From positions 1 to 64,000 of the forward strand of contig JAIQEX010000012.1 of assembly GCA_020073615.1 (NCBI GenBank): 64,000 nt of DNA. Reading direction: 5' to 3'. This document shows, piece by piece, positions 24,700-38,895 of the stretch (positions are counted from its first letter, which is position 1; each line of letters opens with the position of its first letter). The DNA comes from Terriglobia bacterium (GTDB lineage Bacteria > Acidobacteriota > Terriglobia > Bryobacterales > Bryobacteraceae). Made by a program: the position numbers and the translations under genes. The notes beneath the pieces are model-generated. The model did no database searches, was not told where the DNA came from, and worked only from the letters and a program-made list of their open reading frames with translations.

Positions 24700-27600
24700 T
24701 TACTTGCCCGCGCCGCCGGCCGTCTTGCCGCCGCGGTAAACCGGGTACGCCGGCTTCTTGTGGACCGGAATGGGGTGCTTCTCCAGCTCCGCCAGCAGCA
24801 CCTCGACGGTCTTTTCGAGCTGCGGGTCGTGACCCTCGCGCACGGCGTGCGGATCGAGCTCCACTTCGATGTCCGGGGCGATGCCGCGGTTCTCCACCTC
24901 CCAGTCGCTGCGCGGCGTCCAGAAGCCGCGGCTCGGTGTCGATACCACGCCGCCGTCCATCAACTGTTCCTGCGGGCCGAAGAAGCCGACCAGCCCGCCC
25001 CAGGTGCGCTTGCCGATCAGGGGCCCGATCCCGAGCTCGCGGAAGTGAAACGGCATGGCGTCTCCGCCCGAGCCGGCGTACTCGTTGATGATCAGCGCTT
25101 TCGGGCCGGGAATCAGGCTCACGGGCCAGGTGGTATCCTCGCCGTCGCGCGTGGTGCGATAGTTCAGCAGCCGCCGCTGCAGGTACTCGAGGATGTAATC
25201 GGTCATGGTGCCGCCGCCATTGAAGCGCTCGTCCACCACGGCGCCCTCTTTGCCGGCCTGTGGGAAGAAATAGCGGTTGAAGAACGTATAGCCGCCCGCG
25301 GAGGTATCGGGCAGATAGATGTAGGCCAGGCGGCCCTTGCTGAGCTGGTCCACCTTGCGGCGATTCTCTTCCACCCAGGCGAGGTTGCGGAGCGCCTGCT
25401 CGGATGCCACGGGGACCACGGTCACTTCGCGCGCGCCGGCTCCGTTGGGATCGGGGCCCACACGCAGGCGCACGGATTTGTTGGCGGTGCCCTCGAAGAA
25501 GCTGTAGACTTCGTCCGTGGCGCGCACCTCGCGCCCGTCGACGGAGAGCAGGTAGTCGCCGGCGGCCACGTTGACGCCCGGCTGGGTGAGGGGCGCGCGA
25601 AGCTGCGGGTTCCAGTTTTCGCCGTCATAGACGCGCGTGAAACGATAGCGGCCGTTTTCCACCTGGTAGTCCGCGCCGAGCAGACCCACGGGCACGCGGC
25701 GCACCTCGGCGAAATCGCCGCCGCCCACGCGCAGATGCCCGACCGTGAGCCCTCCCAGCGCCTCTTCGAAGAGGTAGTTCAGATCCACGCGCGCGGCGAT
25801 GCCGTCCAGGTAGGGTTCGTAGCGCTTCTCGGCGGCCTCTAAATCGAAGCCGTGGAAGCCGGGGTCGTAGAAGAAGTCGCGCTCCAGGCGAAACGCTTCG
25901 TGGTACATCTGTTTCCATTCGGCCAGCGGGTCGACGCGCACTTCCATCGCTGCCAGGCGCAGGACCTGCGCTCCGGGCCGCGCGCCCGCGGGTGCGGCGG
26001 CGGGACCCGCCGGGGCCGGTGTGGTGGGTGCGACGGTCCACTGACGCGCGGGCGGACCGCCACCCGCGGGGGCGGCGCCGGTTCCGGCGTTGGGCGCATT
26101 CTGCCGGTACAGCATCTTCTCGCCGTTGTCCGAGACGGTGAAGAAGGTGACGCCTTCGACGAGCCTTTCCGCCTTCCGGGTCTTCAGGTCGAACCGCTGG
26201 ACGGCGATCGTATTCGGGCCGCCCAGCGATTGCACCAGCCCTCCTTCCACCACGAAGAGCACGCCCTCTTTGCCCGCGATCAGGCGCTCGTAGTTGCGGG
26301 GCGGAAGGGGCAGCGCAAGGATGCGCTGGGAGATGCGGTCGAAATCCACGCGGACGGGGGGCGGCTCTTTCGCGGGCTTCTTGGCGGCCTCGGTCTCGGG
26401 CCGCGGCGCTTCCGCCTCGAGAGCGGCCTTCTCTTCATCGCTCTCCGGCGCCAGGGGCGAAGGCAGATCCTTGCGCAACACGGTCACGTACACGCTGCTG
26501 GTGAACTGCCGGTTGAAGCCGGTCATGGAGGTGTCCATGAGCGGCCCGGCATCGGTGCTGGCCAGCAGGTACAGGTATTTGCCGCCGCGGTCGAAGACCG
26601 GCGACAGGGCGTCGCTCATGCCGTCGGTCACGGCATGGCTCGCGCGCGTTTCGAGCGAATAAAGGTAGACCGATCGCATGTGGCTTTTGCCCTGCCGCGT
26701 ATAGGCCAGCCACTTGCTGTCGGGCGACCAGGCCGCCTGGAAGATCTGCTCCGGGCCGGTGAAGGTGTCCTGGAATACGTGCACCGGCTTGCCGTCGGCG
26801 AGGTCCACGTACCACAGGTTGAGGCGCTTGTCGGTGTAGGCGATCTTCTTGCTATCGGGCGACCAGGTGGGGTTGTAGAAAAACGACGCGGGAGTGCCGA
26901 GCGCGATCTTTCGTACGTCGCCCTCGCCGTCCTGCTTCACGATATGGAGCGCGTACTCGCCCGATTCATCGGAGAAAAACGCCACGTGCGCGCCATCCGG
27001 CGACCATGCGGGATTGCGCTCGTGCACGCCCGGCGTGTTGGTCAGGTTGCGGATGTCGCCCTTTTCCGCCGGGACGGTGAGGATCTCGCCGCGCGCTTCG
27101 AAGGCGGCGCGGGCGCCGGTGGGCGAGAGCGTGGCATCGCCGATGCGGTTGGCCACGGTGACGAAGTGCGGCCGCACCTCGGGCATGTCGCCGGCCAGGC
27201 GGATATCGACGGGATGCGCGCGCCCGCTCTTCAGGTCGTACAGATGGATGGCGCCGAACTGCTCGTAAACGATCGCGCCCGGCCCGGCGCAGGCGGATTT
27301 CAGGTCCAGGCCGTCGTTGTCCACCACCGGGGTGACGGTCTTTTTGCGCGTGTCGTAGGAGAACAGGGTGACCGGGCCGTTGCGATCGGAGAGGAAAAAG
27401 ATGCGGTCGTCCACCCACATGGGGTTGAAGTCGTTGGAATTGTCGCGCGGCAGTTTTTCGATGCTGGAGTCCGCGAGCTTGGCTATCCAGATGGGCGACG
27501 TGCGGCCGCCGCGATAGCGCTTCCACATGGAGAAGGCGCGATTCAGCGGCACGTAGGCGATGCGCGTGCCATCGGGCGAATAGGAACCCTCGCCGCCCAT

Positions 27601-28044
27601 GGGAAGCGGCACCTGGCTGGGAAAGCCTCCGCCGCGCGGCACGGTGAATAGCTGCGTGAAGAACGTGTAGCTGGCGCGATTGGAGGTGAACAGAATGCTC
27701 TTGCCGTCGGGTGTCCAGCCCATGGTCTGATCGGGCGCGGGATGCCAGGTGAGGCGCCGCGGCACTCCTCCGGAAGCGGGGACGACGTAGACGTCGGTGT
27801 TGCCGTCGTACTCGCCGGTGAAGGCAATCTCGGCGCCGTCGGGCGAGAAGTAGGGGCGCGTCTCCACTCCGGCGCCGGTGGTGAGCCGCTGGGCGACGCC
27901 GCCTTCGCGGCCGGCGATCCAGAGATCTCCGGCGTACACGAACGCAATCCGGGCCGCGCTCAACGTGGGCTTTTGCAGGAGCAGTTTGGGCTCGGCGGAG
28001 AGCGTCATGCCGGCGAATACCAGGAGGCAGAGGAAGCGATTCAT
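24700..28044 (-). CDS. Tricorn protease homologue (S41 serine peptidase with beta-propeller)
   Basis: An 1114-residue exported peptidase from the ATG at 28044 (signal MNRFLCLLVFAGMTLSAEP), which has a GGAG ribosome site; the track adds 11 residues. The N-terminal half is a TolB/WD40-like propeller with repeated blade motifs (SPDGAEIAFTGEYDGN, WSPDSKKIAYTDKR). Then comes a tricorn core domain, a PDZ domain (GDYLLSVDGREVRATDEV) and the C-terminal S41 peptidase with VVDERFNGGGTMTDYILEYL and the nucleophile region INEYAGSGGDAMP. In archaea tricorn trims proteasome products; bacterial homologues with signal peptides likely act in the periplasm on peptides. Confidence 0.93.
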   Translation of the reverse strand: MNRFLCLLVFAGMTLSAEPKLLLQKPTLSAARIAFVYAGDLWIAGREGGVAQRLTTGAGVETRPYFSPDGAEIAFTGEYDGNTDVYVVPASGGVPRRLTWHPAPDQTMGWTPDGKSILFTSNRASYTFFTQLFTVPRGGGFPSQVPLPMGGEGSYSPDGTRIAYVPLNRAFSMWKRYRGGRTSPIWIAKLADSSIEKLPRDNSNDFNPMWVDDRIFFLSDRNGPVTLFSYDTRKKTVTPVVDNDGLDLKSACAGPGAIVYEQFGAIHLYDLKSGRAHPVDIRLAGDMPEVRPHFVTVANRIGDATLSPTGARAAFEARGEILTVPAEKGDIRNLTNTPGVHERNPAWSPDGAHVAFFSDESGEYALHIVKQDGEGDVRKIALGTPASFFYNPTWSPDSKKIAYTDKRLNLWYVDLADGKPVHVFQDTFTGPEQIFQAAWSPDSKWLAYTRQGKSHMRSVYLYSLETRASHAVTDGMSDALSPVFDRGGKYLYLLASTDAGPLMDTSMTGFNRQFTSSVYVTVLRKDLPSPLAPESDEEKAALEAEAPRPETEAAKKPAKEPPPVRVDFDRISQRILALPLPPRNYERLIAGKEGVLFVVEGGLVQSLGGPNTIAVQRFDLKTRKAERLVEGVTFFTVSDNGEKMLYRQNAPNAGTGAAPAGGGPPARQWTVAPTTPAPAGPAAAPAGARPGAQVLRLAAMEVRVDPLAEWKQMYHEAFRLERDFFYDPGFHGFDLEAAEKRYEPYLDGIAARVDLNYLFEEALGGLTVGHLRVGGGDFAEVRRVPVGLLGADYQVENGRYRFTRVYDGENWNPQLRAPLTQPGVNVAAGDYLLSVDGREVRATDEVYSFFEGTANKSVRLRVGPDPNGAGAREVTVVPVASEQALRNLAWVEENRRKVDQLSKGRLAYIYLPDTSAGGYTFFNRYFFPQAGKEGAVVDERFNGGGTMTDYILEYLQRRLLNYRTTRDGEDTTWPVSLIPGPKALIINEYAGSGGDAMPFHFRELGIGPLIGKRTWGGLVGFFGPQEQLMDGGVVSTPSRGFWTPRSDWEVENRGIAPDIEVELDPHAVREGHDPQLEKTVEVLLAELEKHPIPVHKKPAYPVYRGGKTAGGAGK

Positions 28045-28151
28045 AGGGGGCTCCAATCGGCTTGGAATTGGCACCATTCTACTTCAAAACCGCGGGAATC
28101 GATTTCAGCGGGAACCGCTCAACGTGAGGATCGGCCGCTCGGCGGAGGGCT

Positions 28152-28559
28152 TTACCGCATCATGGGTCCGCGCATCCCGCCCCGCCAGAGCGGGCGGCCG
28201 GCTTCGTCGCGGAGGCGGATGGTCTTGTTGCCGGCGGGGAGCGTGACGCTGGCTGCCACCATGTCGCCGTTCATCTTATAAGCCTTGACTGCAATCTCGT
28301 CACCGCGCTTGGGGTTGAATCCCTGGGCCATCAGGTAGCGCATCGACCCCAGGAACACCTTCACCGTCCGATCGCCGCTCTTGACGGTCACAAACGGCAT
28401 CCCTTCTCCAGGCGTGATCTGAACGCGGGCCACCTTCCCGTTCAACTCGATCAGCGGACCGGGACTCACGGCGCCGCAGCATGCCCCCATGCCCCGCTGC
28501 GCCATCAGAGCGCCGGGGACCAGCACGCTAGCGATCATCCAGCCAACCACCCACTTCAC
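28152..28559 (-). CDS. Small exported protein under a sigma-54-like promoter
   Basis: A 135-residue protein starting with GTG at 28559 after an AGGAGG site (track start 28730 is too long). A signal peptide (VVGWMIASVLVPGALMAQ) is followed by a Cys-Cys pair (GMGACCGAVSPG) and a beta-rich domain (KVARVQITPGEGMPFVTVKS and IAVKAYKMNGDMVAASVTLP) ending in a Gly/Met/Arg tail (RGGMRGPMMR). I do not recognise a named family; the double cysteine and Met-rich tail suggest metal or redox exposure. It is divergent from the kinase/NtrC-type pair and shares its presumed regulation with the Spy-like gene at 31465. Confidence 0.8.
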   Translation of the reverse strand: MKWVVGWMIASVLVPGALMAQRGMGACCGAVSPGPLIELNGKVARVQITPGEGMPFVTVKSGDRTVKVFLGSMRYLMAQGFNPKRGDEIAVKAYKMNGDMVAASVTLPAGNKTIRLRDEAGRPLWRGGMRGPMMR

Positions 28560-28586: not shown

Positions 28587-28601
28587 GCACCCGGGGTGCC
28601 G
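28587..28601 (-). promoter_or_regulatory. Candidate sigma-54 (-24/-12) promoter of the 135-residue exported protein
   Basis: Minus-strand CGGCACCCCGGGTGC fits TGGCAC-N5-TTGC, with GG and GC exactly 12 positions apart; only the first base of each box differs. Transcription would start about 12 bases downstream, directly before the AGGAGG site and the GTG at 28559. Confidence 0.65.
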
Positions 28602-28655
28602 CGCCGCAAGCCGCTGAGTTTTGTAGCCCATTGCGACCTGGTCCGGTTGCAGGAT

Positions 28656-28702
28656 ACGCAGATCCTGCGCGGGTAGCCCGGCAGGGCGCAGAATTTGCGC
28701 CC
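28656..28702. promoter_or_regulatory. Paired palindromes, candidate enhancer for the NtrC-type regulator
   Basis: Two sites of the same form lie in the kinase/exported-protein intergenic region: ACGCA-GATCC-TGCGC (28656-28670) and GGGCGCA-GAATT-TGCGCCC (28684-28702). Their centres are 30 bp apart, about three helical turns. They lie 55-100 bp upstream of the -24 box, as expected for an NtrC-family activator. The first also overlaps a second palindrome, GCAGGAT-N6-ATCCTGC. Confidence 0.6.
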
Positions 28703-28826
28703 AAGACTGGCGAACCGCCCTTCGGGACATAGATAATCAGCGCCGTTGCAACAGGATCGCCCATGTCACCGGCAATTGCAGAAGGCATCTACGGTAATAC
28801 GGTATTAAGGGCTGTTAATATCGGTT

Positions 28827-30083
28827 ATGGCGGCTCGCCTGGCGGTGAAAATCTCGGGTTGGAAACGGACGGGCAGATTCTCATTCCGCGCGTTGCTCGC
28901 AGTATCCCTCGGCCTCCCGCTGGTTCTGGTGTTCCATGCGGTTCTGGCTTCCCGGGAACTGAACGAGATGCGCTCGATCTACCTCCGCGATCGGGCCGCC
29001 AACATTGCCGCGCGGCTGGAAGCAATACCGGCGGACCGGCTCCGGCGGGGCGATTTCGAAGAACTGCTGGAGAGCGAACCGGCATTGCTGGCAATTAAGG
29101 TGTTCTCACCTGCGGACAGCGACGCGGCCACGACCGCCGTGGAGGCCATTCGCTCGGGCCGCGAGTTGTACCACACCGAGGCGATGGGGACAGGGAGGGG
29201 CGCCGCATTTCGGGCCTATATCCCATTTCACTCCAGCGGCGAGGTCCACGTTGCGCGGATCGACCTCTTGGCATCGGCGCCGGATTTTATCCTGGTTCAC
29301 GCGCGACACAATACCCTGATCGCCTTCCTCAGCGGAGCGGTCCTGCTGCTGATGTCGTTCTTTGCGATGTGGGGCATGCGGCGGGCTTCCCGCTTCGAAC
29401 GGCAGCAATCGGAGACCGAGCGATTGGCGCAGCTGGGAACGCTCTCGGCCGTGCTTGCCCATGAGATTCGCAACCCTTTGGGAGCGATCAAGGGATTTGC
29501 CCAGTTCGCCCGCGAAGGCGCCGAGCCGGGAAAGGCGAAGCCGCTCGATGCCATCGTCCGGGAGAGCAGACGGCTGGAGAATCTCGTCGATTCACTGCTC
29601 CTGTACGGCCGTCCCGTGACGCCGGCAGCCGGGCCGACCGACTGGCAGCCGTTGTCGGACGATTTAGAATCCTATGCGCGGGACCTGATTGGTGCGCGCC
29701 CGATCCGCTTCACAATCGAATCGGACATACGCCGCTTGTCCACCGACGCGAATATGTTGAAGCAGACGCTTCTCAATCTGGTCCGGAACTCGGTGGAAGC
29801 CATTCCCGCTGGTGGTTCAGGAAACGTCACACTACGCGCAATGGCCGGACGGGGTGGCGTGGCCGCAATCTCGGTGGAGGATGACGGTCCCGGCATCCCG
29901 GAAGACATGCGATCGAGGCTATTCTCGCCCTTCACGACGGGCAAATCATCGGGCACAGGCTTGGGCCTGTCGATCTCGAAAAAACTAGTGGAAGCGATGG
30001 GCGGCACGCTGCAATTGCTGCCGATCGAGCCACACGGGACAAGAGCGGAATTGCAACTGTATGGAACGAATCCTGATCGTTGA
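28827..30083 (+). CDS. Membrane sensor histidine kinase (NtrB/ZraS-like)
   Basis: A 418-residue kinase. Residues about 20-42 are a first membrane helix (FRALLAVSLGLPLVLVFHAV), followed by a periplasmic sensor domain of about 120 residues, a second helix (LIAFLSGAVLLLMSFFAMWG), then HisKA with the phospho-acceptor in LAHEIRNPLGAIKG and a HATPase domain with NLVRNSVEAIP, EDDGPGIPEDM and GTGLGLSISKKLVEAMGG. It overlaps the response-regulator gene by 23 bases. Architecture and partner match kinases of sigma-54 systems such as ZraS. No clear ribosome site was found before the ATG, so the start is less certain. Confidence 0.9.
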   Translation: MAARLAVKISGWKRTGRFSFRALLAVSLGLPLVLVFHAVLASRELNEMRSIYLRDRAANIAARLEAIPADRLRRGDFEELLESEPALLAIKVFSPADSDAATTAVEAIRSGRELYHTEAMGTGRGAAFRAYIPFHSSGEVHVARIDLLASAPDFILVHARHNTLIAFLSGAVLLLMSFFAMWGMRRASRFERQQSETERLAQLGTLSAVLAHEIRNPLGAIKGFAQFAREGAEPGKAKPLDAIVRESRRLENLVDSLLLYGRPVTPAAGPTDWQPLSDDLESYARDLIGARPIRFTIESDIRRLSTDANMLKQTLLNLVRNSVEAIPAGGSGNVTLRAMAGRGGVAAISVEDDGPGIPEDMRSRLFSPFTTGKSSGTGLGLSISKKLVEAMGGTLQLLPIEPHGTRAELQLYGTNPDR

Positions 30084-31416
30084 CGACGACCCCGGCTTTC
30101 GCGACCTGCTGGAAACGATCCTCTCGAAAGAGGGGTATCAGGTCGATTCGGGCGCCTCCGTAGCCGATGGTGTCCGGCTGGGATCGCAGCGCCAATATGG
30201 CTTGGCGCTCACGGACCTCAAGCTCCCGGACGGAACCGGCCTGGACGTTCTGCGCTGGTTTACGGAACAGATGCCGGATGCGCCGGTGATCATGCTCACG
30301 GCGTTTGGCACCGTCGAATCGGCCGTGGCTGCCATGAAAATGGGCGCCGCGGATTATCTGGGAAAGCCGCTCAACAGTCCCGATGAGCTTCGGCTCACGG
30401 TGCGGCGGGCGCTGGATCAACGGCGGGCGAACCGCGAATACGCGGTCCTGCGCGAGGAGCAGATACGGCGGTTCGATTGTCAGGGGATGATCGCGGGCGA
30501 CCCGAAGATGGTGGCGGCGCTGGAATTGGCCCGCAAGGTTGCGCCCACCAGCGCGACGGTCTTGCTGACCGGTGAGAGCGGGACGGGAAAGGAAGTCCTG
30601 GCACGCTGTATTCACCTGAACAGCGCGCGCAGCCAGCGGGTCTTTGTGGCGGTGAACTGCGCGGCGCTGTCGCCGACGCTGATCGAGAGCGAGTTGTTCG
30701 GACACGAGAAGGGCGCTTTCACGGGAGCCGTGTCGCAGCACCTGGGCCGTTTCGAGCGGGCGCATGGGGGAACGTTGTTCCTCGATGAAATTGGCGAGCT
30801 GGATGGCGGTCTTCAGGCCAAACTGCTGCGAGTCCTCCAGGAGAAGGCTTTTGAGCGTGTCGGCGGCGCGCGGCAGATCACGGTTGACGTCAGGGTGATC
30901 GCGGCGACGAATCGCGACCTTAAGAAACGGGTTGCCGAAGGGCAGTTCCGCGACGACCTCTACTATCGTCTGAACCGCTTCCCGATCGAGATCCCGCCGC
31001 TACGCGAACGGCTGTCGGATCTCGAACCGCTGGCGGCGTATGTCCTCGCGCGTGCGGCGAAGGAACTCGGTAAGGCGCCGCCCCGGCTGACCAGGGAGGC
31101 AGTTCGGGCGCTGCTTTCGTACCGGTGGCCGGGAAACGTGCGGGAATTGGAGAATGCCATGGAGCGCATGGCGATCCTGTGCGAGGAGAGCATCGATGCG
31201 GGGGACCTGTCGATGCTGCAGGGCGAAGCGCGCAGGCCGCTGCTCTGGCGCGACATCGAACGCCAGGCGATTGAAGACGCCCTGCGCATGAACCACGGCA
31301 ACCGGACCCTCGCCGCGCAGCAACTCGGGATCAGCTTGCGGACCTTACAGTACCGCCTCAAGGAGTACCAACTGGATGACGGCGGCGGGGCGGCAGAAGA
31401 CGTCCCGGAAGCATAA
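30061..31416 (+). CDS. NtrC-family sigma-54-dependent response regulator
   Basis: A 451-residue activator with three domains: a receiver ([20 protein letters not shown], phosphorylated Asp in [15 protein letters not shown]), a sigma-54-interacting AAA+ domain ([15 protein letters not shown]; the GAFTGA loop; Walker [13 protein letters not shown]) and a C-terminal Fis-type helix-turn-helix ([20 protein letters not shown]). The GAFTGA loop means it activates sigma-54 RNA polymerase, which agrees with the -24/-12 promoters on both sides of this operon. Overlaps the kinase gene. Confidence 0.95.
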
Positions 31417-31418
31417 AA

Positions 31419-31459
31419 GCGGCGCGCGGGAGGCGACAACCGCGGCCCCCGCGCGCCGC
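31419..31459 (-). terminator. Intrinsic terminator between the regulator and the Spy-like gene
   Basis: A perfect 12-bp stem (GCGGCGCGCGGG / CCCGCGCGCCGC) with a 17-base loop, followed on the minus strand by TTTT. It lies directly after the Spy-like gene's stop and would end that transcript; it may also stop the convergent regulator transcript. Confidence 0.7.
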
Positions 31460-31464
31460 CTCTC

Positions 31465-32004
31465 CTACGGACGAACGCCGGCGCCAAAGCCCCGGCCCAT
31501 CATCCCCATGCCGCGTCCACCGCCCATCATCCCCATTCCCGGCCCCCAACCGAGGCCCATGCAGAGGCCGGCGCCCTCGTATTTGTCGAATTGATCGCGC
31601 TGTGTGGGCGTGAGGATGTTGTAGAGCTGCGCGAACGCCGTGGTGTGAATCGCCTGCATCTTAGCGACCAGCGTTCCGGCCGTCGTGGTCAGTTTGTCGA
31701 TGTCCTTACCCGTTCTGGCCGCATTACGCAGGTCGGTGTGGGCCTGCAGAAGAGCGGGTTGGAGAGCCTGGGTGGCGGCAAGCGCGGTGTCAAAGATCGT
31801 GTTCGCCTGCGCTTTCTGGGATACATCCAAACTCAGGATTGTCGAGATCCGTTCGAGCCACCAGTTGGCCGAGCGTTGGGCGCCGGCCTGTGGATTGGCG
31901 CACCAGTGTCCGAAACCCGGACCCTGGGCCATGGCCATGCCGACCGCAATCGCGGCGACCGCAGCCACTCTCATCATTCTGTTATCGAGCATCGTCGTCA
32001 TCAT
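31465..32004 (-). CDS. Spy/CpxP/ZraP-like periplasmic protein
   Basis: A 179-residue exported protein. The signal peptide (RVAAVAAIAVGMAMA) is followed by a helical domain carrying an LTPxQ motif (LYNILTPTQRDQFDKYEG), the hallmark of the Spy/CpxP/ZraP group, and a Gly/Met-rich tail (GPGMGMMGGGRGMGMMGRG). Spy-like proteins are periplasmic chaperones; the Met-rich tail suggests binding of a soft metal. The first ATG at 32004 has a GAGAAGG ribosome site. A sigma-54-like promoter lies just upstream, and the NtrC-type regulator is the convergent neighbour, as in ZraSR/ZraP. Confidence 0.85.
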   Translation of the reverse strand: MMTTMLDNRMMRVAAVAAIAVGMAMAQGPGFGHWCANPQAGAQRSANWWLERISTILSLDVSQKAQANTIFDTALAATQALQPALLQAHTDLRNAARTGKDIDKLTTTAGTLVAKMQAIHTTAFAQLYNILTPTQRDQFDKYEGAGLCMGLGWGPGMGMMGGGRGMGMMGRGFGAGVRP

Positions 32005-32048
32005 GGGTCACCTTCTCCATCGTGAATGTGAAACTGCCATTGAGGTAC

Positions 32049-32063
32049 GCAACTCCGATACCA
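32049..32063 (-). promoter_or_regulatory. Candidate sigma-54 (-24/-12) promoter of the Spy-like gene
   Basis: Minus-strand TGGTATCGGAGTTGC matches TGG-N8-TTGC exactly in sequence and spacing. The leader to the ATG at 32004 would be about 33 bases and includes the GAGAAGG site. Confidence 0.72.
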
Positions 32064-32136
32064 CGGCTTGGCATCTGCTGGCCGATTGCAATCCGGGGAG
32101 TTACGCGCCGGGGCGCCAAATCCTGGAGCGCCGCCG

Positions 32137-32182
32137 CTGCAGACCGTGCAGGCGAGGGGTGCCGGGTGCGCAAAGACTGCGC
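32137..32182. promoter_or_regulatory. Second pair of enhancer-like palindromes
   Basis: CTGCA-GACCG-TGCAG (32137-32151) and GCGCA-AAGAC-TGCGC (32168-32182) lie 75-120 bp upstream of the -24 box of the Spy-like gene. Their centres are 31 bp apart, and the second has the same GCGCA-N5-TGCGC core as the best site at 28684. The rest of the 453-base gap to 32458 holds nothing else I can support. Confidence 0.55.
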
Positions 32183-34764: not shown

Positions 34765-35991
34765 ATGGCAAGGCGAATACTGGCGGGCGGCGTTCCCGAG
34801 CCGGAGGAGCTGTTCGGCCGGGAGCACACCATCCGATTCATCTGGGAGCAGTTGCGGGGCAACAACATTTTGCTGGTGGCGCCGCGGCGCTTCGGGAAGA
34901 CGGGGGTGATGAACCACCTCTTGAAGCGGACCGAGCCCGGATATGTGGCGGTCTACCTGGATGTGGAGGACGTTCACGATCCGGAGGTCTTCTGTTCCAA
35001 CCTGATTGCCGGTCTTCTGGAACACAACGGTCTGCGCTCCATCATCGCCGGCACAAAGGCTCTACCCAAGAAAGTCCTGGACATTATCGCCTCGCGAGTC
35101 GGCGGCGTGAAGATGGAAGGCTTCGAGATCGAGCTGCGGGACGTGGTGCGGGACGAATGGGCCAGCGTCACGCGGGCGCTGATTCTTGAAATGGAAAAGG
35201 CCGACCAGACGGTGCTTTTTATCCTCGACGAGTTCCCGCAACTGATCGAGAACATCGCCAGGAAGCACCAGGACGAGGCGGCGCGCACTTTTCTGCAGTG
35301 GTTCCGGTCGCTGCGCATGAAACAGAAAGACGTGCTGCGGCGGTACCGGTTCGTGCTGGGCGGTTCCACGAGCATCGACTTGACCCTGCGGCGGCTGGAG
35401 GTGCCCGACAAGCTGAACGATTTCTACCGCGTGCCGATTGAAGCGCTAAGCCAGGAACACGCGGAGGCTCTTTTCGACGCCCTGGCGGAGACCTCCGGGC
35501 TGCGCTTCACGGCGGAAGGGCGGGCGGCGTTCTTCGAGCTGGTCGCGCCGCCGGTTCCTTACTTCCTGCAGTTGTTCGTTTCGCAGATCCGGCTGGAGGA
35601 GAAGCTGAAGGACCGGGAACTGGGCCCGGAGGAGGTGGCCGCGGTGTATCACCGCCGGGTGCTGGGGCCCACGTGCCGCGCTTATTTCGACTACTACCGC
35701 CAGCGGTTGAAGCGCTACGGGGAGAAGGGCGAACGTGCGGCGTGGGCGGTGTTGCAGGAGGTGGCGCACGCTCCCTCGGGCCGGGTGTCGGACAGCATGC
35801 TCTACGACGTGTATCGGCGCGCGCGGGGGAAGGGGGCATCCAGTTTCGAGTTCAGCGAGATCATGGCCGACCTGGAAAGCGACTGGTACCTGCTGCTGGA
35901 CCTGAAGACCAACGAGTACGGTTTCCTGCTGCAGGTGATGCGCGATTGGTGGAAGCGGTTCAGCCGAACGGTGGGCGGGAAGTCGAAATAG
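34765..35991 (+). CDS. P-loop ATPase of the archaeal-ATPase/AAA type (cassette gene 1)
   Basis: A 408-residue protein. Walker A is APRRFGKTGVM after an N-terminal FGREHTIRFIWEQ; Walker B is VLFILDEFPQ; a sensor-1-like segment follows (YRFVLGGSTSID). The C-terminal part (from about residue 290) looks like a winged-helix region (ERAAWAVLQEVAHAPSGRVS, then EIMADLESDWYLLLD). The plan matches the archaeal-type STAND/AAA ATPases that often act in conflict or regulatory systems. It lies nine bases upstream of a second, different ATPase gene and has its own promoter. Substrate or effector is unknown. Confidence 0.8.
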   Translation: MARRILAGGVPEPEELFGREHTIRFIWEQLRGNNILLVAPRRFGKTGVMNHLLKRTEPGYVAVYLDVEDVHDPEVFCSNLIAGLLEHNGLRSIIAGTKALPKKVLDIIASRVGGVKMEGFEIELRDVVRDEWASVTRALILEMEKADQTVLFILDEFPQLIENIARKHQDEAARTFLQWFRSLRMKQKDVLRRYRFVLGGSTSIDLTLRRLEVPDKLNDFYRVPIEALSQEHAEALFDALAETSGLRFTAEGRAAFFELVAPPVPYFLQLFVSQIRLEEKLKDRELGPEEVAAVYHRRVLGPTCRAYFDYYRQRLKRYGEKGERAAWAVLQEVAHAPSGRVSDSMLYDVYRRARGKGASSFEFSEIMADLESDWYLLLDLKTNEYGFLLQVMRDWWKRFSRTVGGKSK

Positions 35992-36000
35992 GAGCCGACG

Positions 36001-38895
36001 ATGGCATTCGCGCACTTGTCTTACGATCCCTGGGAGTTGCAGCGGGAGGAACGCGAAAAAAGGTTCGTGGGGCGCGAGGCGCTGCTGGAGCAGGTGCTGG
36101 GCGCGGTCGCCGAGCAGCAAGGGCACGGGACGCTGCAGCATTACCTGCTGCTGGGACCGCGCGGAATCGGGAAGACCACCTTGCTGCTGACGCTACGCGA
36201 CCGGGTGCGGGACCAACTCTCGGCGCAGTGGTGGTGCGTGCAGCTTCGCGAGGAGGAGTACTTTGTCCGGACGCTTCGGGACCTGCTGGAACTGACGCTG
36301 CGCGGTCTGGCGGAAGAGGAATCGCTACCCGACGCGGCGGAGTTGGCGGACTGGGTGCATGGAGAGCCGAACGCGGAGCGGAGCCTGGCGCTGGCCGTGG
36401 AGGGATTGCGGGCCTTGGCAGCGAAGCATGGCAAGCGGGTGCTGCTGCTGGTGGACAATTTCGACCGGGTGTTTCCAGCGACGGCGGCGGGCCGGGGTAA
36501 GAAGCGGCCGCCGGAGAGCGAATTCCGGGCCTTTCGGAAGCTGCTCAGCCGGGAGGGCTTTTTGATGGTCGTCGGCGCGTCGGTGCGGCTGTTCGAGGAG
36601 ATTGCGGCGTACGACCGTGCCTTCTTCAATTTCTTCGTGCCGGTGGAAGTTCCCGACCTTTCCGAGGACGAGATCTGCGAGTTACTGCGACGCTGCGCGG
36701 AGGCGGAGGGCAACACCAGGTTCCTGGCGCAGTTCGACGCGATGCGGGAGAAGGTGCGGGCGATCACCTACATGACAGGAGGGAATCCGCGGCTGGTAGT
36801 GATGCTATACGACGTGCTGCGGCAGCATGAGATGGCGCCGGTGGTGCAAGCGCTGCGGGAGACGGTGGGCGGACTAACGCCGCTGCTGAAGCACGTGCTG
36901 GACGACATGCCGCGGCAGCAGAGCAAGACGCTGGATGCGCTGGCGCGGCTGCGGGTGCCTGCATCGCCGAACGAGATTGCGAAGCTGGCGCGGCTGCCGC
37001 TGAACGTGGTCACGACGCAGCTTGGCCGTTTGAAGGAGGGCCGGTTTGTAGCTGTGGCGGGAGAGGGCAAAGGGCGGCCGGCCACGTACCGGATTGCGGA
37101 CCCAATGTTTCACACGTGGTACCAGATGCGGTATCTGCGTCCGGCGGGGCGACGGGTGGAGTTGTTTGTGGAGTTCATACGTGCCTGGTTTTCGGTGGAG
37201 GAGCGGCGGAAGTTTCTGGATGAGAGATGGCGGGAGTTGAGGACGGGACGGCGGGTGGGCATGGAGGCGGCGCTCACGATCCAGCACTATGCGTCCGCTC
37301 TCGAGGATAAGCGGGAGCGGTGGGGGCACGTGGAGCGGCTGGCCGATGTGCTCGCGGAAGGAGGAAAGGAGCGCGAGGCGGCGATGTTGCTGGCGGAGTC
37401 CGCGGAGCCGGACGCGTTCACGGAAATAAACTTTGACTCGGCAGGGTATCGGTTACTGGGGTTTCGGAGAGTGGCGAAGCGGGATCTCAAGGGAGCGGTC
37501 GCAGCGTTCCAGGAGGCACTGCGGCAGGAGCCGGGAAACGCGGCGGCTAGGATAGGTCTGGGGCTGTCCTTTGCGGAGGCCGGGAAACATACTTTGGCGG
37601 TACAGGAGTTAGGGCGGGTTCTTGAGATGAAGGGTCTCCCAGTGGAACAGGTTGCCACGGCGCTCGTAGGAAGGGCTGCCGAGAAAGAAGAACTCGGCGA
37701 CCTCCAGGGCGCAATTGCCGATTCTACGGCAGTGGTGGAGTTGGCTGGTGCTCCAGTCGAAGGCGTTGCCATGGCGCTCTACAACCGAGGGCACGCGAAG
37801 GGGCAAGGCGGGGACAGACAGGGAGCGATTGCCGACTACACCTCAATGTTGGGGTTGGCCGGCGCTCCCGTAGAAGTAGTTGCCAGGGCGCTCTACAACC
37901 GAGGGCACACGAAGGGGCAAGGCGGGGACAGACAGGGAGCGATTGCCGACTACACGGCAGTGGCGGAACTGGGCGAGGCTCCGGTGGAACAAATAGGTAT
38001 GGCATTGATAAACCGGGGCTTCACGAAAGAGCAACTCGGGGACCCAAACGGCGCAATTGCCGACTACACGGCAGTGGTGGAGTTGACTGGCGTTTCGGTG
38101 GAACGAGTTGCGATGGCGCTCGTCAACCGGGGCGGCATGAAGGTACAACTCAAGGATCTCCAGGGCGCAATTGCCGATTCTACGGCAGCGGTGGAGTTGG
38201 CCGGCGCTCCTGCGAAAGGCGTTGCCAGGGCGCTCTTGTGCCGAGGCATCGCGAAAGGGCAACTGGGGGATAGACAGGGAGCGATTGTCGACTATACGGC
38301 AGTGGTTGAGTTGCCCCGCGCTCCGATCGAACAAGTTGCCAATGCGCTCAACAATCGCGGCACGGTTCTGAGCGACCTCGGGAGGACGGAAGAAGCGATT
38401 GCGTCCTTTGAACGATGCCTGGAATTGAAGGCGAGTGAGGAGTCAGTACACGCATCCTTCACCGGGCTGGTAGGAGTTCTCCTCGCCAACGGAAGGGATG
38501 CCGAAGCAGCGGATTGGATGGTGCGACTGGACGAGTTCGAATCGACGGACGTGCCGATAGAGGCTCGGCTGGAAGCCAGAATCCAGGCGGTCAAGGCGGC
38601 GGGGAGCCAGTATGGGCCCGACGCCGCCGAGATGCTGCTGGATGCGGCATTGCGCGGAGGACCGGAGGATATTCGGGCGCGGCTGGAATTCCTCGGGCCG
38701 GCTATTCAGTATGCGAAGTCGGGAGATGAGCAGGCCCTGTACCGGCTGCCGGAGCGGGAACGCGACATGGCAAAACAGATCGCCGGTTCGCTCTCTACTC
38801 CTGCCGTAGCGCCCGCACCGGATCTACCCGGCTCGCCCGCCGCGCGGGCAGGAAACTCGCGAACAGGGCGGCGGCTACCAGCACGGAAATCGTGA
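36001..38895 (+). CDS. STAND-like ATPase with long array of 38-residue repeats (cassette gene 2)
   Basis: A 964-residue protein preceded by an AGGAG site. Residues 1-280 are a P-loop ATPase: FVGREALLEQVLGAV, Walker A LLGPRGIGKTTLLLTL, Walker B RVLLLVDNFDRVF (Asp-Asn rather than Asp-Glu), and a sensor segment GFLMVVGASVRLFEE. Residues 300-390 form a winged helix (PNEIAKLARLPLNVVTTQLG, then YRIADPMFHTWYQMRYL). From about 490 the protein is TPR-like, with about seven 38-residue repeats containing GDRQGAIADYTAVVEL. This is the STAND plan of signalling ATPases: nucleotide switch plus superstructure-forming sensor. No fused effector domain is visible. Its last 33 residues are encoded antisense to the neighbouring permease gene. 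Confidence 0.8.
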   Translation: MAFAHLSYDPWELQREEREKRFVGREALLEQVLGAVAEQQGHGTLQHYLLLGPRGIGKTTLLLTLRDRVRDQLSAQWWCVQLREEEYFVRTLRDLLELTLRGLAEEESLPDAAELADWVHGEPNAERSLALAVEGLRALAAKHGKRVLLLVDNFDRVFPATAAGRGKKRPPESEFRAFRKLLSREGFLMVVGASVRLFEEIAAYDRAFFNFFVPVEVPDLSEDEICELLRRCAEAEGNTRFLAQFDAMREKVRAITYMTGGNPRLVVMLYDVLRQHEMAPVVQALRETVGGLTPLLKHVLDDMPRQQSKTLDALARLRVPASPNEIAKLARLPLNVVTTQLGRLKEGRFVAVAGEGKGRPATYRIADPMFHTWYQMRYLRPAGRRVELFVEFIRAWFSVEERRKFLDERWRELRTGRRVGMEAALTIQHYASALEDKRERWGHVERLADVLAEGGKEREAAMLLAESAEPDAFTEINFDSAGYRLLGFRRVAKRDLKGAVAAFQEALRQEPGNAAARIGLGLSFAEAGKHTLAVQELGRVLEMKGLPVEQVATALVGRAAEKEELGDLQGAIADSTAVVELAGAPVEGVAMALYNRGHAKGQGGDRQGAIADYTSMLGLAGAPVEVVARALYNRGHTKGQGGDRQGAIADYTAVAELGEAPVEQIGMALINRGFTKEQLGDPNGAIADYTAVVELTGVSVERVAMALVNRGGMKVQLKDLQGAIADSTAAVELAGAPAKGVARALLCRGIAKGQLGDRQGAIVDYTAVVELPRAPIEQVANALNNRGTVLSDLGRTEEAIASFERCLELKASEESVHASFTGLVGVLLANGRDAEAADWMVRLDEFESTDVPIEARLEARIQAVKAAGSQYGPDAAEMLLDAALRGGPEDIRARLEFLGPAIQYAKSGDEQALYRLPERERDMAKQIAGSLSTPAVAPAPDLPGSPAARAGNSRTGRRLPARKS
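37670..38360 (+). repeat. 114-bp tandem coding repeats in the STAND-like ATPase
   Basis: The segment GCGCTCTACAACCGAGGGCA occurs at 37774 and 37888, a period of 114 bp (38 residues). Related units continue to about 38360. The second and third units are nearly identical, while later ones diverge, which points to recent local duplication. Confidence 0.85.

What the first reader, a model, noticed from the sequence alone, without database searches (positions are those of the whole stretch)
28587..32182. A self-contained sigma-54 regulon around a ZraSR-like two-component system
Both genes that flank the kinase/NtrC-type regulator point away from or toward it and carry a -24/-12 promoter: CGGCACCCCGGGTGC before the 135-residue exported protein and TGGTATCGGAGTTGC before the Spy/ZraP-like protein. 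Upstream of each promoter lie two palindromes of one family: ACGCA-N5-TGCGC and GCGCA-N5-TGCGC on one side, CTGCA-N5-TGCAG and GCGCA-N5-TGCGC on the other, with centres 30 and 31 bp apart. Paired, helically phased sites upstream of sigma-54 promoters are how NtrC-family activators bind. The regulator has the GAFTGA loop. Known biology: E. coli ZraSR activates zraP from a sigma-54 promoter. Inference: this operon senses envelope or metal stress and induces two periplasmic proteins, one of which (the CC-containing, Met-rich-tailed protein) seems undescribed.
Basis: partly seen in the sequence, partly recalled or inferred. Interest (0 to 1): 0.85.

Follow-up and report, generated by a model that had tools for sequence, protein, structure and literature searches.

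The report
Kinase-regulated sigma-54 envelope protein regulon
A soil-bacterium sensor kinase and its DNA-binding partner sit between two genes for secreted proteins, each with the same paired docking sites for the regulator, and the arrangement recurs in many related bacteria, so it is very probably a real, so far undescribed stress circuit rather than a chance pattern.

Summary
The four palindromes and two -24/-12-like sites are at the stated places. The window's only two GCA-N5-TGC pairs 30-32 bp apart are exactly these two (0.05 expected). In 22 orthologous kinase/exported-protein intergenic regions, GCGCA-N5-TGCGC is the most frequent of all spaced 5-mer palindromes. The pair-plus-promoter arrangement recurs in 9 of 22 (0 in 200 shuffles). 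Palindrome-to-promoter distances step by about 10.5 bp. In the own genome the paired site occurs essentially only here, so 'self-contained' holds here. Corrections: the conserved partner is not the Spy-like protein (only window and nearest relative) but the 135-residue protein, an exported OB-fold protein found beside the kinase-regulator in 32 of 40 orthologous loci. Its CC and Met-rich tail are not conserved. Relatives put tandem OB proteins, DUF2202 proteins, small Cys/His-rich exported proteins, a polyferredoxin or the kinase behind the same boxes. OB proteins of this family neighbour NtrC-type regulators in other Acidobacteriota and a second phylum. It works like ZraPSR but is not ZraSR by curated models. 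The signal (metal or envelope stress) is inferred. New variant of a known kind.

The parts
28152..28559 (-). P1: 135-aa exported protein, predicted OB fold; GTG start with an AGGAGG-type ribosome site 10 bases upstream; proposed target 1
   Evidence: AlphaFold2 mean pLDDT 75, core about 90; Foldseek hits are OB domains; ortholog beside the kinase-regulator in 32 of 40 loci
28587..28601 (-). -24/-12-like promoter of P1, CGGCACCCCGGGTGC (off-consensus at two places)
   Evidence: score 9.2; nearest relative has CTGGCATCGAGGATGCA at the same place, 12.3
28656..28670 (.). proximal palindrome ACGCA-N5-TGCGC, start 69 bp upstream of the 5' edge of the promoter 17-mer
   Evidence: same spacing of 66-70 bp in 11 of 22 orthologous regions
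28686..28700 (.). distal palindrome GCGCA-N5-TGCGC, 99 bp upstream of the same edge
   Evidence: 97-102 bp in L048, L050, L051, L053, L057, L061, L062, L064 and others
28827..30083 (+). sensor histidine kinase, two transmembrane helices flanking an extracytoplasmic PAS/Cache-like domain, HisKA and HATPase_c; no HAMP or PAS domain matched in Pfam
   Evidence: sensor model mean pLDDT 83, weak Foldseek matches to WalK, CitA and DcuS sensor domains
30061..31416 (+). NtrC-type response regulator: receiver, AAA+ with GAFTGA, Fis-type helix-turn-helix; overlaps the kinase gene by 23 bases
   Evidence: 41 of 237 family genomes hold an ortholog; recognition helix [15 protein letters not shown] conserved
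31465..32004 (-). Spy/CpxP-like (LTXXQ) exported protein with Met/Gly-rich tail; proposed target 2
   Evidence: 31.1 bits, Pfam cut-off 24.3; ortholog only in L048 = L042
32049..32063 (-). -24/-12-like promoter of the Spy-like gene, TGGTATCGGAGTTGC
   Evidence: score 9.0; the L048 counterpart is stronger, ATGGCACGGGAGCTGCA, 16.9
32137..32151 (.). proximal palindrome CTGCA-N5-TGCAG, about 88 bp upstream of the promoter edge
   Evidence: the same 88/119 geometry stands before the L051 kinase gene and 89/120 before the L053 polyferredoxin gene
32168..32182 (.). distal palindrome GCGCA-N5-TGCGC, 119 bp upstream of the promoter edge

Best explanation
This is a dedicated two-component sigma-54 circuit for envelope proteins. 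An extracytoplasmic stimulus acts on the PAS/Cache-like domain of the kinase; the kinase phosphorylates the NtrC-type regulator; the regulator binds two palindromes (GCGCA-RRNYY-TGCGC) that lie three helical turns apart on one face of the DNA, assembles into a AAA+ oligomer and, by a short loop and its GAFTGA loops, opens sigma-54 RNA polymerase at the -24/-12 promoters of P1 and of the Spy-like gene. The two exported products then act in the periplasm, P1 as an OB-fold ligand- or metal-binding protein and the Spy-like protein as an ATP-independent chaperone or metal buffer. Shown by computation: gene content, box conservation, pairing, phasing, confinement to this locus, conserved coupling of P1 with the regulator. 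Inferred: that the regulator is the protein that binds the boxes, phosphorylation, direction of control (activation). Weakly inferred: that the stimulus is metal or envelope stress and that P1 binds a metal or feeds back on the kinase.
For: Unbiased count of all spaced 5-mer palindromes in 22 P1/kinase intergenic regions puts GCGCA-N5-TGCGC first: 10 loci against 4 for the next, which are sub-sites of it. Exact sites in 10 loci (0.1 expected), palindrome pair plus promoter in 9 (0 in 200 shuffles). Unselected pair spacings pile up at 30-32 bp (11 of 20 pairs within 70 bp) with smaller piles at 11 and 20-21. Proximal palindrome-to-promoter distances in 28 units are phased with a period near 10.5 bp (34, 47, 57, 68, 77, 88; Rayleigh p 1e-7 for all units, 5e-4 for distinct values). 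Own genome: 8 hits of the pair pattern, 3 of them here, the reversed control pattern gives 5, and the others lie mostly in coding-like frames. Seven paralogous regulator loci lack paired boxes. sigma-54 gene present. Regulators beside P1-like genes in another phylum with the same recognition helix have GCA/TGC pairs 20-22 bp apart before a -24/-12: L046, L242, L245, L251.
Against: The two promoters in this window are off-consensus; without the relatives they would not stand out. 5 of 22 orthologous regions have no palindrome with one mismatch or fewer. The spacing classes used in the triple test were chosen after seeing the data. Orthologous loci are not independent. No expression, footprint or binding data exist. 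Several distant loci with the same recognition helix (L145, L149, L159, L171, L248, L250) showed no such pair at my threshold.
Confidence: 0.8

Rival explanations
1. A true member of the ZraPSR zinc/envelope-stress system, with the Spy-like protein as ZraP.
For: Same architecture (kinase with a single extracytoplasmic sensor domain, NtrC-type regulator, small exported helical protein behind a sigma-54 promoter); the ZraR regulon of E. coli is likewise tiny and local: zraP, zraSR, mgtA (PMC7657598). Metal_resist (ZraP family) is the commonest Pfam among neighbours of P1-like genes elsewhere, 6 of 115.
Against: ZraS and ZraR NCBIfam cut-offs not reached, AtoS/AtoC score higher; Metal_resist below cut-off; the Spy-like gene is absent from all orthologous loci but one; no paired-box promoter faces the kinase in the window.
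Confidence: 0.12
2. The palindromes belong to another DNA-binding protein (repressor or nucleoid protein), and the regulator acts elsewhere.
For: No binding data; palindromes alone do not name their protein.
Against: They follow this regulator's orthologs, sit at helically phased distances from -24/-12 sites, are missing at seven paralogous regulator loci, and reappear beside distant regulators with the same recognition helix.
Confidence: 0.1
3. Chance or composition artefact of a GC-rich genome.
For: Single boxes and single promoters occur at background level.
Against: Pairs, promoters and spacing conserved across many species far above shuffled controls.
Confidence: 0.02
4. The signal is not metal or protein-folding stress but a small ligand (for example a carboxylate, as in CitA/DcuS), and P1 is a periplasmic ligand-binding or electron-transfer accessory protein.
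For: The sensor model resembles CitA, DcuS and WalK domains, though weakly (best E 0.004); the regulator is closest to AtoC; a paired-box promoter precedes a 4Fe-4S polyferredoxin in L053.
Against: Neighbours are Metal_resist, LTXXQ, DUF2202 and Cys/His-rich exported proteins more often than transporters or catabolic enzymes.
Confidence: 0.25

Closest known systems
ZraPSR of Escherichia coli and Salmonella
   Same: Sensor kinase, NtrC-type sigma-54 activator and a small exported protein of the Spy/CpxP/ZraP kind, with a very small regulon whose members lie beside the regulator (PMC7657598 for E. coli)
   Different: Sequence models for ZraS, ZraR and ZraP are not met; the conserved target is an OB-fold protein; the Spy-like gene is downstream and convergent; no paired-box kinase promoter in the window, although some relatives (L051, L062, L064, L073) have one
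AtoSC of Escherichia coli
   Same: Best NCBIfam scores of both kinase (175 bits) and regulator (423 bits); from memory, a similar recognition-helix end
   Different: Below both equivalog cut-offs (646, 714); no short-chain fatty acid genes at this locus
Spy/CpxP (LTXXQ) periplasmic chaperones
   Same: The 179-residue exported protein passes the Pfam LTXXQ cut-off
   Different: NCBIfam Spy equivalog not met (15 of 174 bits); Met/Gly-rich tail; control by sigma-54 rather than Cpx/Bae
sigma-54 regulome of Desulfovibrio vulgaris (PMC4641369)
   Same: Many NtrC-type regulators with local targets and palindromic sites, most within 100 nt of the promoter
   Different: The passages I read describe no GCA-N5-TGC paired site and no OB-fold exported target

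Membership tests
NtrC-family sigma-54-dependent two-component regulators | receiver + AAA+ sigma-54 interaction domain with GAFTGA + Fis-type helix-turn-helix | tested here: met
   (Response_reg, Sigma54_activat, HTH_8, all above cut-off); GAFTGA in the translation
NtrC-family sigma-54-dependent two-component regulators | sigma-54 encoded in the same genome | tested here: met
   one Sigma54_DBD match, 198.8 bits
NtrC-family sigma-54-dependent two-component regulators | upstream activating sites near -24/-12 promoters | tested here: met
   by sequence only
ZraPSR | regulator passes the ZraR equivalog model | tested here: not met
   346 of 760 bits
ZraPSR | kinase passes the ZraS equivalog model | tested here: not met
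   140 of 479 bits
ZraPSR | target is a ZraP (Metal_resist) protein | tested here: not met
   25.2 bits, cut-off 29.2; LTXXQ met instead
ZraPSR | autoregulated kinase-regulator operon | tested here: not met
   no paired-box promoter facing the kinase in the window, but found in L051, L062, L064, L073
ZraPSR | induction by zinc or envelope stress | not testable with these tools
   needs expression data
Spy/CpxP (LTXXQ) family, for the 179-aa protein | Pfam LTXXQ above gathering score | tested here: met
   31.1 of 24.3 bits; L048 ortholog 31.2
OB-fold proteins, for P1 | five-stranded OB barrel | tested here: met
   confident core in the model; PDB matches are OB domains of LysRS, ExoVII and Stn1, E about 1e-4, TM about 0.4; a distant member matches Pfam tRNA_anti-codon OB, 30.4 of 27 bits; window protein itself matches no Pfam family above cut-off

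The most novel reading that the evidence does not exclude
An old, widespread and undescribed envelope-sensing module: a PAS/Cache-type kinase, a distinct clade of NtrC-type regulators reading helically phased GCA-N5-TGC pairs, and a previously unnamed family of exported OB-fold proteins that is its core output and possibly its feedback sensor, present in Acidobacteriota and at least one other phylum, with clade-specific accessory outputs (Spy/ZraP, DUF2202, Cys/His-rich peptides, polyferredoxin).
Probability: 0.45. Interest if true: 0.68.

Novelty: new variant of a known kind. Interest (0 to 1): 0.52.

Why it matters
Sigma-54 circuits in Acidobacteriota are almost unmapped; I found no paper on one in the library. 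This locus gives a regulator, its predicted site, its promoter geometry and its targets together, all testable by footprinting. It also gives a first functional handle on an exported OB-fold family that occurs in 62 of 396 sampled genomes of the phylum and in 66 of 297 of a second phylum, and on DUF2202, for which the library holds no paper. The 10.5-bp stepping of enhancer-promoter distances across species is a natural experiment on helical phasing of close enhancers.

Tried and rejected
Single-motif enrichment in the window: boxes and promoters alone are at background. Pattern of one box plus one promoter in the own genome: 10 hits, 6 in the reversed control, other hits mostly in coding-like frames; no further target proposed. 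L047 (Desulfoluna) from the P1 scan is a chance peptide match in an unrelated membrane protein. The CC and Met-rich tail as defining features: not conserved. Spy-like protein as core of the system: rejected, in 1 of 40 relatives. Sequence search of the PDB with the P1 profile: nothing significant. Geobacter or Desulfovibrio papers as a source of the same motif: not found in the passages read.
Full report
WHAT IS THERE. A sensor kinase gene (28827-30083, +) overlaps by 23 bases an NtrC-type regulator gene (30061-31416, +). A divergent gene for a 135-residue exported protein, here P1 (28152-28559, -), lies upstream and a convergent gene for a Spy/CpxP-like exported protein (31465-32004, -) lies downstream.

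THE BOXES. Single elements are unremarkable: boxes with at most one mismatch 18 against 13 expected, and some 30 sites in the window reach the score of these promoters on my hand-made sigma-54 score. But the whole window holds only two pairs of GCA-N5-TGC with starts 30-32 bp apart, and they are the two reported ones; a first-order Markov model gives 0.05.

CONSERVATION. 41 of 237 family genomes, the own genome included, carry a close ortholog of the regulator; I fetched 40 relatives with flanks. P1 is recognisable in 32 of 40, the kinase in 37, the Spy-like protein in one. In 22 short divergent P1/kinase regions, a count of all 5-mer palindromes with spacers 0-15 puts GCGCA-N5-TGCGC first, in 10 loci against 4 for the next; those next are sub-sites of it. 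With at most one mismatch the box is in 17 of 22 (1.6 expected from dinucleotide shuffles), a pair at 30-32 bp in 12 (0.1 expected), and pair plus promoter at the conserved distance in 9 (0 in 200 shuffles). The distance windows for the last test were chosen after inspection, so that number is descriptive; the palindrome count is not. Without pre-selection, pair spacings pile up at 30-32 bp. In 28 pair-plus-promoter units the proximal distances are 34, 47, 57, 67-70, 77 and 88 bp, period about 10.5 bp. Alignment of the window with its nearest relative shows the palindromes and the promoter core as conserved blocks in otherwise diverged DNA on the P1 side; the Spy side is conserved less clearly.

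SPECIFICITY. In the own genome the paired pattern has 8 hits; three of them are these two sites (the P1 pair is counted on both strands), the reversed control gives 5, and the rest lie mostly in coding-like frames. The sigma-54 gene is present. Seven loci of paralogous regulators in the same genome have no paired boxes. The regulator's recognition helix ([15 protein letters not shown]) is nearly invariant among orthologs and differs from those of the paralogs.

WHAT THE TARGETS ARE. P1 has an export signal and a conserved core with LGSMRYLxxxxFNPKAG and LRDxxGxPLWRG. The model is confident over the core and matches OB domains in the PDB; one distant member hits the Pfam OB family above its cut-off. 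The Cys pair and Met-rich tail are peculiar to few members. Behind the same boxes relatives place: P1; tandem two-OB proteins (L058-L060, L070); DUF2202 proteins (L065, L068, L071, L072); small Cys/His/Gly-rich exported proteins ahead of P1 (for example L057, L061, L065, L069); a Fer4_5 polyferredoxin (L053); the Spy-like protein (window, L048); and in L051, L062, L064 and L073 the kinase itself.

BEYOND THE FAMILY. P1-like genes occur in 62 of 396 sampled genomes of the phylum. Of 39 non-family loci fetched, 15 have an NtrC-type regulator within the roughly 11-kb stretch. In the own genome 21 such regulators in 6.96 Mb would give about 1.3 by chance; this base rate is rough because other genomes differ. 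In the phylum of a MAG titled 'Deltaproteobacteria bacterium' 66 of 297 genomes have P1-like genes and 14 of 40 loci fetched have a regulator nearby. L046, L242, L245 and L251 of that phylum combine a related recognition helix with GCA/TGC pairs 20-22 bp apart before a -24/-12-like site. Other loci with the same helix show none at my threshold, so the site is only partly conserved at that distance. On a tree of 69 regulators the family orthologs form one clade (support 100/100), and most regulators beside P1-like genes group near it, apart from the seven own paralogs included. Among 115 neighbours of distant P1-like genes the commonest Pfam is Metal_resist, the ZraP family (6); among 74 neighbours in the family loci it is DUF2202 (5).

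HOW IT PROBABLY WORKS. See the best explanation. The sensor domain model is PAS/Cache-like with weak matches to WalK, CitA and DcuS; this fits an extracytoplasmic ligand or metal but does not name it. The metal/envelope-stress reading rests on the company of LTXXQ, Metal_resist, DUF2202 and Cys/His-rich proteins and on the analogy with ZraPSR, whose regulon is equally local (PMC7657598). It remains inference.

MEMBERSHIP AND NOVELTY. It is an NtrC-type sigma-54 circuit. It is not ZraSR, ZraP or AtoSC by curated models. No description of this circuit, motif or P1 family was found in the paper library, which lacks most subscription journals. I class it as a new variant of a known kind.

Noticed in passing
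L065, L068, L071, L072 downstream of the regulator; L055 without a clear promoter: DUF2202 (distantly rubrerythrin-like) exported proteins behind paired boxes and a -24/-12; a testable first regulatory context for DUF2202.
   Followed up: partly
L052, L057, L061, L065, L066, L068, L069, L070, L071, L073, L080 upstream of P1-like or related genes: Families of small exported Gly-rich proteins with Cys/His clusters or DKDxDGKCD and GPRDGSGP motifs, no Pfam match for the one tested (L061).
   Followed up: partly
L058-L060, L070, L083: Tandem two-domain versions of the OB protein (about 245-250 aa); a protein of five tandem copies in L145.
   Followed up: no
L159:4645-9383: By eye, a CusBA-like heavy-metal efflux pair lies beside the kinase, regulator and OB gene; not tested with a model.
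   Followed up: no
window 24700-28077 (-): Tricorn-type protease with beta-propeller, PDZ and S41 peptidase domains next to P1.
   Followed up: no
window 34765-38895 (+): Two adjacent genes that look like P-loop NTPases, the second with many TPR-like repeats, downstream of a carboxyltransferase/biotin-carrier pair.
   Followed up: no
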